Of a stretch of 51,292 nt of DNA, positions 35,477 through 41,731 are shown one piece after another. Made by a program: the position numbers and the translations under genes. How positions within the stretch are numbered: the stretch's first letter is position 1; each line of letters opens with the position of its first letter. The notes under the pieces are model-generated. The model saw only the letters and a list, made by a program, of their open reading frames with translations, made no database searches and had not been told where the DNA came from. This stretch comes from an uncultured Sutterella sp. (lineage in GTDB: Bacteria > Pseudomonadota > Gammaproteobacteria > Burkholderiales > Burkholderiaceae_F), in the NCBI GenBank assembly GCA_949282745.1, contig CASDQM010000046.1, positions 1 to 51,292 of the forward strand, written 5' to 3'.

Positions 35477-36454
35477 TCAGTCAACGGGGATTTTCTCGAC
35501 CACGCGGAAGTGCCCGTCGGGCCAGCCGCCGATCCAGCCCTTAAGCAGACTCGTGTCGTCGGTCGTCGCTTCAAGGCGCCAGAAGCCGTCGTCGAGCTTT
35601 TCGAGCTTCTGGTCGCGCGAGAAGGGCGCTTCGTCAAGGAGCGTCGCCGTGTGGTTGTCCTCGAATTCGAGGATGAGCCGCACCTTCTTGCCGTTGCTGT
35701 AGTTGAAGTGGCGTCCCCGCATGTATTCGTCGAGCGTAAAGTCTTCGGGGACGTCCGCCGCGAATTCGAGGAGCTTTGCGTCGAGCATGCGGTGCAGCGC
35801 CAGGTGCCGGCAGTTGTCGTAGCCGTCAAAGCGCACGACGACGTAGACCTTGCGGTCCTGCAGCACGAGCCCGAGGGGCGAGACGATCGCCTCCTTTTCC
35901 TCGCCGTCGAGATTGCGGTAGCGCACTTCAAGCTTCACTTCGCGGTAGAGCGCTTCGGAGACGGCGTCGAAGATGCGGGGCTTGATTTCGGGCGGAATGA
36001 ACTTGACGCCGCTCGGCACCGACGCCACCTTCGAGAGCCAGGTGCGCTCCGGTGTTTCGGGGGCGCGCTCGCGAAGCGTCGCGCGGGCCGTCTCAAAAAG
36101 CGGCTCCATTGCGTTCATGAGGGATCCAGGAAGGAGGTAGCGCATGTTTTCTTCGAAGAGACGCAGAAGGAGACACTCCTGCGGGCTCATCTGCATCGCC
36201 GAGAAGCTTCCCGAGGGAACGGTCTGCCGATAGGCGTAGACGCGCGTGCGGTCGTCGAGTTCCACGCCGAGTTCGGGGTGGCTCACGATGCGCTTCAGGA
36301 CGCGCTGCAGCGTCCGACGGTGCACGTGGAGGCCCTGCGACGCGAGACGGTTCTGAATTTCGCTCGTCGTCGTCCAGCGCCGCGTGATGCCGCGCAGCAC
36401 CGCGAGAATCAGCAGAATGTCGTTGTTGTGGTCGGCGTTGATGTTCTTTTCCAT
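35477..36454 (-). CDS. WYL-domain transcriptional regulator
   Basis: 325 residues. An N-terminal winged helix-turn-helix (about 10-75: LLILAVLRGITRRWTTTSEIQNRL and LHVHRRTLQRVLKRI) precedes a WYL domain (about 150-235: KLEVRYRNLDGEEKEAIVSPLGLVLQDRKVYVVVRF) and a C-terminal WCX-type domain. WYL proteins bind nucleotides or nucleic-acid ligands and regulate stress, DNA-damage and phage-defence genes. It is 79 nt downstream of the methyltransferase-HNH fusion and 84 nt upstream of the nitroreductase/efflux operon, all on the same strand, so it could control either. Confidence 0.88.
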   Translation of the reverse strand: MEKNINADHNNDILLILAVLRGITRRWTTTSEIQNRLASQGLHVHRRTLQRVLKRIVSHPELGVELDDRTRVYAYRQTVPSGSFSAMQMSPQECLLLRLFEENMRYLLPGSLMNAMEPLFETARATLRERAPETPERTWLSKVASVPSGVKFIPPEIKPRIFDAVSEALYREVKLEVRYRNLDGEEKEAIVSPLGLVLQDRKVYVVVRFDGYDNCRHLALHRMLDAKLLEFAADVPEDFTLDEYMRGRHFNYSNGKKVRLILEFEDNHTATLLDEAPFSRDQKLEKLDDGFWRLEATTDDTSLLKGWIGGWPDGHFRVVEKIPVD

Positions 36455-36533
36455 CCTCGTTTTCCTCGGAATGCGTTCGAATAGAGGATAGCGCAGACGC
36501 GACCGTTTTTGACGCTAAATGATTGCGCGCCGA

Positions 36534-38348
36534 TCACTGGCCCGTCGAAACGCCGTCCCAGCGGGCGGCGCCGAACTGCCGTGCCGTATCGTCGGCCGTG
36601 CGGAGCACCGCGTCAAAGAGCGGCGTCTCCCAGCCGACCTTGGGAAGCGACGTGCGAAGAAGCGTGTTTTCCGCCTGCGCGCGAAAAAGCGCCGAATGGG
36701 CGTCTTCGAGCGTTCGCCAGGCGCGGAAGAGCCGCGGGCGCGCTTCGTCGAGAAGCCGAAGCGTCGGGAGACGGTCGCTCTTTCGACCGTTCGCGGTTCG
36801 GTCCGCGGGCAGAAGATTCCAAAGGTCGTTGCAGTGCGTTCTCGCCCAGGGAATCATGTGGTCGACCGCGAGCGTCGAGCGGGTGAGCGGTCGGTTCGTC
36901 CAGACGCAGCGCAGATTCCCCGTTCCTTCGAAAACGGCCTTGGCGAGCACCGTGTCGCGCTCGGGATTGTCGGGCGGAAGAAGTCTCTCGAGCACCGCCG
37001 CCGTGGTTGCGGGCTCGCCCGCCAACTTCGAAAAGCGCACGGAAAGCCTCGCCCACTCGAGCATGACGGTGTTGACGAACCAAGGAGCCGACCGGTTGAG
37101 TTCGTTCCAGAGGGGAACGGGGAGGCGCAGTTCCCCGAAGTGATGGGCCAGCCCCGCGGGCGTGGGCGCCCAGGCGCCTTTTTGGACGTGCGACGTGTAA
37201 AAGGGTTTGCCGTCGGGAGATTTGCTCCCCGTGAAGTACACGGGGCCCTTTTTGAGGGTCTCGGCGATGTCGATCACGGTTTCGAAAAAGGCCTTGACCT
37301 TGGCGGGATCCGCGTCGGGGAGGGCGAGCCGTCCCTCGTAGAAATCCCGCCGAAAGTGAAGCCGATCGCCCGCGTAGAGCGCCTGCAGGCGGGAGAGCGA
37401 TGCGCCGAAGCCGAGCGTCCGTGAACCTTGAATCTGCCGCGGCGCGGGCCCCGTTCCCGCGGTGAGCTCCCAGAAGTAGTCGAGCCAGCGCTCGACGACG
37501 AGCGAAAAGGGAATCGCAACCCAGTCGGCTTCAATGCTCGCCGCGGGTTGCCACTCGTTTCTCGCGAGAAAGCGGGCGCGTCCCGGCGCCTCGATGTTGA
37601 CGTCCGCTACGGCGCGAAGGAGCGCGAACTTGTAGGTGGCGGTCTTGGCTTCGTCCTCGAGAATGCCGCGAAGCCGCGAGACGGCCCGAAGGCGTTCGGC
37701 GCGGCGCACGAAGACGAGCGTGACCCAGGTGCATTCCTTGCCCGGGGCGCCCGTCGATTCGCGACGCTCGCTGTAGGCCTCTTCGAACCCGAAGCGCGAG
37801 AGAAGCGACGAATAGTGGGCGGCCGGGCGGTTTGCGTAAAACCGCGGATCTTCAGCGGTCGCCGTCGCATGGTTTTCGGGAATGGAGAGGACGATCGTTC
37901 CGGCGTCTCCGAGAACGGCGTCGATGAAGAGCGCCGCGTCGAAGAGCCCCGCGTCGTCCAAGTGCTGCAAAACGCCGATCGCGACGAGTGCGTCGAAGGA
38001 ATCCTTTTCGCCGAGGAGCGCGAGCGCTCCCGTTCTCGTGCGCGGAGCCATGCCCGAATCGTTTCGGGGCGGAAGGGGTAGGTGTTGGAACCGGATTCCC
38101 CCGACCTCTTTGGCGAGGTCCCGCGCGATGCGGAGCATCTCTTCCGATCCGTCGGTCGCGGTGACGCGTACGCCGCGCGCGGCCATGCGTCGTGCGTCGC
38201 GCCCCGAGCCGCAGCCGAGTTCGAGCACCCGGGCGCCTCGCGGAATCCACCGTTCGAGCACGGCGTCAAGCGTCGTCGCGGTGAGGGACTCGTAGCGGCT
38301 CGCCTCGCGGGCGGCGTTTCGTTCGTAGTGCGAGAGCGTTTCGTTCAT
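36534..38348 (-). CDS. Fusion: SAM-dependent methyltransferase + HNH endonuclease
   Basis: 604 residues, one frame. Residues about 1-215 form a class I methyltransferase with motif I VLELGCGSGR (41-50), the acidic end of beta-2 (TATDGSEEM) and an ALVAIGVLQHL post-motif II. A middle all-helical part (about 225-475) contains TYKFALLRAVADV, seen in many HNH enzymes of this type. The C-terminal HNH has C481, D496-H497 (AVDHMIPWAR), N511 (LWNLLP) and N520/K523 (TANGRKSDRLP), the His-Asn-Lys set of a metal-dependent nuclease. I know no enzyme with this pairing by name; modification plus cleavage in one chain suggests defence or self/non-self marking. Its ATG overlaps the EamA stop by 1 nt (TGATG), so it is coupled to gluQ-eamA. 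Confidence 0.75.
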   Translation of the reverse strand: MNETLSHYERNAAREASRYESLTATTLDAVLERWIPRGARVLELGCGSGRDARRMAARGVRVTATDGSEEMLRIARDLAKEVGGIRFQHLPLPPRNDSGMAPRTRTGALALLGEKDSFDALVAIGVLQHLDDAGLFDAALFIDAVLGDAGTIVLSIPENHATATAEDPRFYANRPAAHYSSLLSRFGFEEAYSERRESTGAPGKECTWVTLVFVRRAERLRAVSRLRGILEDEAKTATYKFALLRAVADVNIEAPGRARFLARNEWQPAASIEADWVAIPFSLVVERWLDYFWELTAGTGPAPRQIQGSRTLGFGASLSRLQALYAGDRLHFRRDFYEGRLALPDADPAKVKAFFETVIDIAETLKKGPVYFTGSKSPDGKPFYTSHVQKGAWAPTPAGLAHHFGELRLPVPLWNELNRSAPWFVNTVMLEWARLSVRFSKLAGEPATTAAVLERLLPPDNPERDTVLAKAVFEGTGNLRCVWTNRPLTRSTLAVDHMIPWARTHCNDLWNLLPADRTANGRKSDRLPTLRLLDEARPRLFRAWRTLEDAHSALFRAQAENTLLRTSLPKVGWETPLFDAVLRTADDTARQFGAARWDGVSTGQ

Positions 38349-41389: not shown

Positions 41390-41731
41390 TCACTCGAGAA
41401 ATTCCGTGACGTCGCACTGAAAGAAGTGCGCGAGGCGCTCGGCCGTTTCGGGCGGGATCTTGCGCAGCCCCGCCTCGTATTTCGAGAGGTGCGACTGGGT
41501 CGTCCCGACGGCTTCGGCCAGGTCCTTCTGCGTGAGATTGCGAAGGAGCCGGTATTGACGAAGACGCTCGAAAGGTTCGCCCTCGCGCTTCGGCAGGGGC
41601 TTGCCCAAGTGCGAAAAGGATTCGAGCCCCGTAAGGATGCGGCGAAGCGCCGCGGCCTCTTCCTTGGGCGCCCGAAGCGTGAAGACGACTTCGTCGCCCT
41701 TGCCCGGCGTTTCGGTGAGGATGATCGGCAT
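41390..41731 (-). CDS. XRE-family transcriptional regulator
   Basis: 113 residues. About 50 N-terminal residues of unknown function precede an XRE/HTH_3 domain (about 55-113): LRQYRLLRNLTQKDLAEAVGTTQSHLSKYEAGLRKIPPETAERLAHFF. The start ATG has GGAG 7 nt upstream. It follows the 2-hydroxyacid dehydrogenase by 13 nt on the same strand and is probably the last gene of the GntR-dehydrogenase-XRE unit. The target is unknown. Confidence 0.88.
   Translation of the reverse strand: MPIILTETPGKGDEVVFTLRAPKEEAAALRRILTGLESFSHLGKPLPKREGEPFERLRQYRLLRNLTQKDLAEAVGTTQSHLSKYEAGLRKIPPETAERLAHFFQCDVTEFLE

What the first reader, a model, noticed from the sequence alone, without database searches (positions are those of the whole stretch)
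35477..38348. Methyltransferase-HNH endonuclease fusion beside a WYL regulator
One 604-residue chain carries an intact class I methyltransferase (GCGSGR), a helical middle domain and an HNH nuclease with complete His/Asn/Lys residues. The next gene, 79 nt away, encodes a WYL regulator, a family often guarding phage-defence loci. The fusion is translationally coupled to eamA, behind gluQ, a queuosine-tRNA gene, which raises the alternative of tRNA-directed modification and cleavage. I know no named system with this architecture; it is the best candidate here for an undescribed defence or RNA/DNA-marking system.
Basis: partly seen in the sequence, partly recalled or inferred. Interest (0 to 1): 0.7.

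Follow-up and report, generated by a model that had tools for sequence, protein, structure and literature searches.

The report
Methyltransferase fused to DNA-cutting nuclease
This gene from a gut bacterium joins a methyl-transferring enzyme to a Cas9-like DNA-cutting domain in one protein; the same fusion turns up in very different bacteria and may be an undescribed genome-protection nuclease, but the regulator gene next to it here looks like an accidental neighbour.

Summary
Window 36534-38348 (minus) encodes one 604-aa chain: class I SAM methyltransferase (MTase, 1-215), unassigned helical middle domain, Cas9-type HNH (Pfam HNH_4). The WYL link is not supported: 12 of 12 Sutterella genomes carry a WYL homologue, including the one without the fusion, and it was seen beside the fusion in only 2 of 11. 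The fusion is in 11 of 12 Sutterella genomes but 16 of 398 sampled genomes of the phylum, window included. A genome-contig scan kept 80 of 338 hits; 78 of these 80 carry the N-terminal MTase, one of them eroded, from about a dozen phyla by record label. Four distant members add a C-terminal LexA-like S24 protease. In 7 of 84 loci an HNH_2-type nuclease gene lies within 1.5 kb, four of them within 50 nt upstream. The MTase lacks DNA-methylase signatures and is eroded in two Sutterella genes that keep the HNH catalytic residues. Best reading: an accessory, mobile HNH nuclease with an MTase gate, probably genome defence; no activity tested.

The parts
36534..38348 (-). MTase-HNH fusion gene, 604 aa
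   Evidence: purifying selection; structure model
37704..38348 (-). N-terminal class I SAM methyltransferase domain (residues 1-215)
   Evidence: Pfam Methyltransf_12/25/23/11 above cut-off; best PDB match 3e23 RPA2492 with SAM, TM 0.84 normalised by the target
38196..38216 (-). SAM-binding motif GCGSGRD (residues 45-51)
   Evidence: D51, which was not a selection criterion, is invariant in 73 of 73 rows of A3; lost in two Sutterella genes outside A3
36915..37703 (-). helical, tryptophan-rich middle domain (residues 216-478), no assigned family
   Evidence: no Pfam match; confident fold; no PDB match of the C-terminal model at E<=0.001
36537..36914 (-). C-terminal HNH nuclease region (residues 479-604), Pfam HNH_4 at residues 481-528
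   Evidence: most of the nearest solved relatives are Cas9 HNH domains
36780..36863 (-). HNH catalytic stretch D496, H497, N511, N520, K523
   Evidence: all five invariant in 73 of 73 rows of A3 and 17 of 17 rows of A1; N511 lies in the scan pattern, the other four do not

Best explanation
It is an accessory, horizontally mobile single-chain nuclease that protects the cell against foreign DNA. The Cas9-type HNH domain cuts or nicks DNA. The conserved helical middle domain is the constant partner of the HNH and most likely holds and positions the DNA. The SAM-binding methyltransferase is a gate or marker acting on the protein itself or on a non-base target, not a DNA base methylase. Shown here: architecture, catalytic residues, purifying selection, a fusion shared by many phyla with patchy presence, MTase and nuclease halves inherited together, loss of the MTase motif with the HNH catalytic residues kept in two genes, pairing with a second HNH nuclease gene at some loci, and an S24 (LexA-like) fusion in one branch. 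Inferred: DNA as substrate, gating by the MTase, release by S24 self-cleavage on DNA damage in that branch, and the defence role.
For: HNH_4 domain and a Cas9 profile match. Patchy presence: 10 of 300 genomes of the order (two of them Sutterella) and 16 of 398 of the phylum, window included; one Belnapia genome with two whole and two split copies; on plasmids, 7 of 28 matching records have one place covering at least 80% of the query. 78 of 80 kept loci are fusions. Distances of MTase and C-terminal halves correlate, r = 0.93 over 2628 pairs. HNH_2-type genes: 7 in 235 kb within 1.5 kb of the fusion, 4 in 1016 kb farther out, 0 in 380 kb of control regions from 20 of the same genomes; binomial p about 0.001 for the distance, 0.005 without the L081 seed (kin loci not corrected for). 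In L081, L095, L102, L123 they lie within 50 nt upstream on the same strand. PADLOC families hit: 119 for 125 genes within 4 kb, 39 for 125 control genes of the same 20 genomes. S24 domain with AAG, SM and KR residues conserved in 4 of 4. The two confirmed hits in 2.9 million viral contigs are no intact fusions: L136 is a stand-alone HNH, L137 a short HNH fragment of fusion type; phage records gave only two MTase-part matches.
Against: Genes within 2.5 kb and genes beyond 5.5 kb gave similar numbers of PADLOC families (115 for 137 genes, 104 for 140), and the far genes include Zorya, Septu, pAgo and AbiE models, so close linkage to defence genes in general is not shown. The 119 against 39 counts families, one protein can hit many, and the control regions hit some defence models too (BrxHI, HamB, DpdJ, capP). 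The HNH_2 profile was seeded from these same neighbourhoods, one seed (L081) from a near-only look, and L033/L034 and L102/L123 are same-genus pairs. Many loci sit among housekeeping-looking genes. In Sutterella the gene is almost universal, unlike a typical defence gene. The two MTase-eroded Sutterella genes also have Ser for C481, which is Cys in 73 of 73 rows of A3, so their HNH may be weakened as well. No activity was tested and the middle domain has no known function.
Confidence: 0.5

Rival explanations
1. Single-chain restriction-modification (type IIG-like): the MTase marks host DNA bases and the HNH cuts unmarked DNA.
For: MTase and nuclease in one chain, inherited together.
Against: No [DNS]PP[FYW] motif and no cytosine-C5 PC/ENV pattern can be read in the MTase half (motif rules recalled). 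Pfam places it with general class I MTases, and the NCBIfam rows, none of which reaches its cut-off, are small-molecule, protein and RNA MTases. Two Sutterella genes lost the SAM motif but kept the HNH catalytic residues, which would be suicidal for a true R-M enzyme if their HNH is active. No target-recognition domain found.
Confidence: 0.1
2. Self-restrained toxin: the MTase methylates its own HNH or a partner to keep it silent, and loss of SAM or of the MTase (for example by a phage SAM-degrading enzyme, or S24 release) unleashes the nuclease and kills the infected cell.
For: MTase type not specific for DNA; S24 fusion in one branch; M78 protease plus HTH genes near L062 and L069.
Against: Stand-alone HNH relatives without an MTase exist (L096, L136, cyanobacterial plasmids L038 and L040), and two Sutterella genes keep the HNH catalytic residues after MTase erosion.
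Confidence: 0.2
3. tRNA- or RNA-directed modification and cleavage, as the reader suggested from gluQ.
For: Some fold neighbours of the MTase are RNA methylases (METTL6), and a PHROG tRNA-MTase family matches weakly (5e-4).
Against: Among the 11 Sutterella fusions gluQ adjacency is limited to the window and G009. The HNH is nearest to DNA-cutting Cas9 HNH domains. The MTase matches are generic.
Confidence: 0.08
4. Chromosomal DNA-repair or maintenance nuclease with no role in defence.
For: 11 of 12 Sutterella genomes carry it; housekeeping-looking neighbours in Alteromonadales and Sutterella; S24 could be read as an SOS link.
Against: About 4% of sampled genomes in the phylum, mixed phyla in the tree, plasmid copies, split copies.
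Confidence: 0.12

Closest known systems
Cas9/IscB-type HNH nucleases (Pfam HNH_4)
   Same: HNH_4 domain; D-H and N residues align with those of Cas9 chains (that they are the Cas9 active site is recalled)
   Different: No other Cas9 part found in the chain; joined to a methyltransferase and an unassigned helical domain
Type IIG/IIC single-chain restriction-modification enzymes
   Same: SAM methyltransferase and endonuclease in one polypeptide (general knowledge, recalled)
   Different: MTase has no DNA base-methylase motif; no target-recognition domain found; MTase can decay while the HNH catalytic residues stay
MADS (methylation-associated defence system), Mad2
   Same: Mad2 profile matches the MTase half, 3.9e-15
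   Different: The match covers positions 281-447 of 492 of the Mad2 profile and none of the HNH part; no other mad gene was recognised at the locus, though most window genes were not scanned
Phosphorothioate-dependent SBD/wHTH-HNH restriction enzymes (ScoMcrA type)
   Same: Helical domain followed by HNH; a relative of this type (27% to an E. coli protein annotated so) lies beside a stand-alone family member on a Nostoc plasmid
   Different: Profile comparison gives no support for homology of the middle domain with the SBD (probability 0.1%); HNH_2 rather than HNH_4

Membership tests
Class I SAM methyltransferases (Methyltransf_11/12/23/25) | family profile above cut-off and GxGxG SAM motif | tested here: met
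   GCGSGRD at 45-51
HNH_4 nucleases | profile above cut-off and D-H...N catalytic residues | tested here: met
   (29 bits, cut-off 22); D496, H497, N520 invariant in 73 of 73
Type IIG restriction-modification | DNA amino-MTase motif [DNS]PP[FYW] | tested here: not met
   motif absent from the translation; no N6/N4 DNA-MTase family among the 10 Pfam families at E<=1 or among the 25 shown of 37 NCBIfam families
Type IIG restriction-modification | methylated recognition site in the host genome | not testable with these tools
   needs base-modification data
MADS | multi-gene locus mad1-mad8 | tested here: inconclusive
   PADLOC scan of P0001 and P0002 gives only mad2 (MTase part) and WYL/Cas3c models; the other window genes were not scanned, and none was recognised as a mad gene by eye
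WYL-guarded defence locus (BrxR/CapW type) | WYL gene conserved beside the effector | tested here: not met
   seen adjacent in 2 of 11 genomes that have both; WYL also present in the one without the fusion
Phosphorothioate-binding HNH restriction enzymes | sulfur-binding (SBD/wHTH) domain | tested here: inconclusive
   hhalign probability 0.1% for the N-terminal parts against seven SBD-HNH proteins, so no support, but the set is small
Anti-phage defence system | protects against phage | not testable with these tools
   needs plating assays
Anti-phage defence system | neighbourhood enriched in defence genes | tested here: inconclusive
   119 against 39 PADLOC families for near and control genes, but 115 against 104 for near and far genes of the wider set of loci
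LexA/S24 autoproteases (only four distant relatives, not the window gene) | S24 profile, Ala-Gly cleavage site, Ser and Lys catalytic residues | tested here: met
   Pfam S24 on 3 of 3 scanned (7.6e-10, 6.2e-12, 1.1e-10; L067 not scanned); residues conserved in 4 of 4

The most novel reading that the evidence does not exclude
A widespread class of one-gene immune nucleases in which a SAM-bound methyltransferase domain acts as the safety catch of a Cas9-type HNH effector. Loss of SAM or of the methylated state, or in one branch LexA-like self-cleavage on DNA damage, frees the nuclease against invading DNA.
Probability: 0.15. Interest if true: 0.85.

Novelty: new variant of a known kind. Interest (0 to 1): 0.55.

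Why it matters
If it works as proposed, an MTase-HNH chain found from Proteobacteria to Acidobacteria, Spirochaetes and candidate phyla has stayed unnamed; in the seven full-length plasmid matches the annotation is only 'class I SAM-dependent methyltransferase' or 'methyltransferase domain-containing protein'. The natural variants (MTase lost, S24 added, second HNH nuclease attached) give ready contrasts to test what the methyltransferase does for the nuclease.

Tried and rejected
WYL as regulator of the locus: rejected, the WYL gene is a separate genus-wide gene. EamA/gluQ context as a hint to tRNA: rejected, not conserved beyond the sister species among the Sutterella fusions. Middle domain as the phosphorothioate-binding SBD/wHTH: tested by hhalign against seven SBD-HNH proteins, no support. 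Middle domain by fold: Foldseek on the C-terminal model gave 0 matches at E<=0.001 in the PDB and in viral models; the top PDB rows are Cas9 with query-normalised TM 0.17-0.19 and probably reflect the HNH only. A conserved small partner gene beside the fusion: matches only between close relatives. MazG-like genes (named by eye) near L076, L081 and L131, 3 of 84 loci, and near L096, which was not among the 84: too few to build on. HTH-M78 profile hits near L098, L106 and L118 are weak (1e-4 to 5e-6), come from related Acidobacteria and may match the HTH only. The MTase's substrate could not be deduced from family or fold searches.
Full report
What is there. The minus strand at 36534-38348 encodes one 604-residue chain without stops. 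Residues 1-215 are a class I SAM methyltransferase and residues 481-528 an HNH_4 nuclease, each above Pfam's cut-off. The part between has no Pfam match. AlphaFold2 on a 73-row alignment gives mean pLDDT 92.5 and pTM 0.83. Against the 86%-identical orthologue in G009, dN/dS is about 0.19, 0.18 and 0.13 for MTase, middle and HNH, so the whole chain is under selection. That the window is Sutterella is inferred: genomes the tool calls same-genus (G003, G004, G005, G006, G009, G010, G011) have fusion contigs of the same lengths as Sutterella records.

The neighbours. The WYL gene 79 nt away is real (PF13280) but not a constant partner. Each of 12 Sutterella genomes has a WYL homologue of at least 40% identity, including G008, which lacks the fusion. 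Only in the window and G009 were the two seen to adjoin; in G001, G002 and G007, single-contig genomes, they lie more than 150 kb apart, and in the other six they are on different contigs. The fetched flanks of these nine other fusions hold no WYL match; two of the contigs are short (7.4 and 14 kb), so a break cannot be excluded there. EamA and GluQ orthologues adjoin the fusion only in G009; a distant EamA relative (33%) lies about 1 kb from the fusion in G002. By gene order the Sutterella fusions sit at several different places.

How widespread. tblastn on plasmids found 28 records, 7 of them with one place covering at least 80% of the query, in Sphingobium, Roseomonas, Azospirillum and Pseudoalteromonas; phage records gave two MTase-part matches only. 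A profile of the middle and HNH domains matched 338 places in genome contigs, of which the best 80 were kept. In 74 the open frame has the SAM motif and a usable start. L076 has a variant motif and a Pfam MTase match, L124 and L132 are cut by contig ends inside the MTase, and L061 has an eroded MTase: 78 of 80. L096 is a stand-alone HNH; L103 is cut by a contig end and undecided. The 80 are the hits nearest to the window, so this share says nothing of the 258 not kept. A viral-contig scan confirmed 2 hits: L136, a stand-alone HNH, and L137, a 133-aa HNH fragment 53% identical to a Roseomonas fusion with no MTase or middle part found in the fetched 13.2 kb. Sampled genomes: 11 of 12 in the genus, 10 of 300 in the order (two of them Sutterella), 16 of 398 in the phylum (window included, one of them a split gene), 2 of 194 in the phylum of one cyanobacterial relative, only one of those of fusion length. 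In the three large searches only the first 5 to 10 candidates of a genome were scored, so these are lower bounds. The tree mixes phyla; many rows are metagenome bins, so single odd placements may be contamination.

Conservation. In the 73-row alignment A3 (window plus 72 of the 74; the split L064 and the near-copy L115 were left out) D496, H497, N511, N520 and K523 are invariant, as is D51. The glycines and R50 of the SAM motif were a criterion for entering A3 and N511 was part of the scan pattern, so their invariance is partly chosen; D51, D496, H497, N520 and K523 are free of that. Two Sutterella genes outside A3, in G007 and G003 (S. seckii), have lost GCGSGRD and also the acidic residue at 66, H129 and W208, but keep D496, H497, N511, N520 and K523. 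Against a clean reading, both have Ser in place of C481, which is Cys in 73 of 73 rows of A3. Between them the MTase half has 0.25 nonsynonymous differences per site against 0.10 in the middle and 0.11 in the HNH. In G004 (S. wadsworthensis) the gene is split into two frames. Pairwise distances of MTase and C-terminal halves correlate at r = 0.93, as expected of one old fusion.

Variants. Four members (L065 Kiritimatiellae, L067 Riflebacteria, L071 and L076 Lentisphaerae) carry a C-terminal S24 domain. Pfam finds it in the three scanned, and the A-A-G site, the S-M serine and the K-R lysine are conserved in all four. The three in the tree (L065, L067, L071) fall in one small branch, which also holds L062 and L068 without S24. 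That this is SOS-controlled release is inference from the known LexA/UmuD mechanism (recalled).

Neighbourhoods elsewhere. A profile built from ten neighbouring HNH_2-type proteins found 7 genes within 1.5 kb of 84 fusions, 2 at 1.5-5 kb, 2 beyond, and 0 in 20 control regions; the near excess has a binomial p of about 0.001, or 0.005 without L081, not corrected for kinship. L081, L095, L102 and L123 have it within 50 nt upstream on the same strand; L079 has it convergent. L033/L034 and L102/L123 are same-genus pairs. General defence genes are less clear: 119 PADLOC families for 125 genes within 4 kb against 39 for 125 control genes, but 115 for 137 near genes against 104 for 140 far genes of the wider set of loci. 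For the first lists I dropped L136, L137, L103, L096, L038, L040, L064, L115, L101 and L031, genes under 90 aa and, in picking, over 1400 aa, and took samples of 137 of 342 and 140 of 280. For the second pair I took all 125 near genes of 90-1400 aa and 125 of 287 control genes. Pfam lists for the first pair show HNH_2 (4), M78 (4), AbiEi_2 (3) and ResIII (3) near; none of these is among the 25 rows shown for far genes, where the list is cut at 2 members, while AAA_21 (4) is seen only there.

Mechanism. The HNH profile's best solved relatives are mostly Cas9 nucleases, with the D-H and N residues aligned, so DNA cutting is the natural reading. The MTase belongs with general class I methylases and shows no DNA base-methylase motif; a plain restriction-modification reading is unlikely. 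Because the MTase can decay or be absent while middle and HNH persist, I take the HNH with its middle domain as the effector and the MTase as a gate or marker. The C-terminal model has no PDB match at E<=0.001.

Literature. Searches for the architecture returned no paper with the terms asked; one search listed three, of which I saw passages of PMC10853773. One search (Mad2) listed only spindle-checkpoint papers; (MADS) listed ten of 30, of which I saw passages of PMC12904381. Neither set of passages describes an MTase-HNH chain. WYL regulators of defence loci are known from PMC9122601, PMC9122589 and PMC9122588 (search listing and start of abstracts only). The library holds open-licence PMC papers only, so a description elsewhere could have been missed.

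Changes on checking.

Noticed in passing
L065:8017-10308, L067:9374-11692, L071:9368-11710, L076:9338-11743: MTase-HNH-S24 triple fusions with conserved LexA-type cleavage and catalytic residues.
   Followed up: partly
L081:7608-8537, L095:8448-9374, L102:8466-9380, L123:270-1184: HNH_2-type nuclease genes within 50 nt upstream of the fusion; in L102 and L123 with an unassigned N-terminal part.
   Followed up: partly
L076:8472-8816, L081:10562-10909, L096:9447-9848: MazG-like pyrophosphohydrolase genes (named by eye) close to the fusion or its stand-alone relative.
   Followed up: partly
L064:9359-10597 (S. wadsworthensis): The fusion gene is split into two frames in this genome; decay or a sequencing error.
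   Followed up: no
L137:2923-3324: Short HNH fragment of fusion type, 53% identical to a Roseomonas fusion, on a contig filed as viral.
   Followed up: partly
L097, L132 (record titles): Metagenome bins labelled Bordetella parapertussis; L097 pairs with a Methylopumilus bin in the tree, so the label looks doubtful.
   Followed up: no
window 41390-41731: Small gene with an XRE-type helix-turn-helix at its C-terminus, antitoxin-like by eye.
   Followed up: no
L121:6341-6940: Stand-alone methyltransferase resembling the fusion's MTase half, 2.4 kb upstream of the fusion in an Alteromonas (Pfam Methyltransf_23 2e-12).
   Followed up: no
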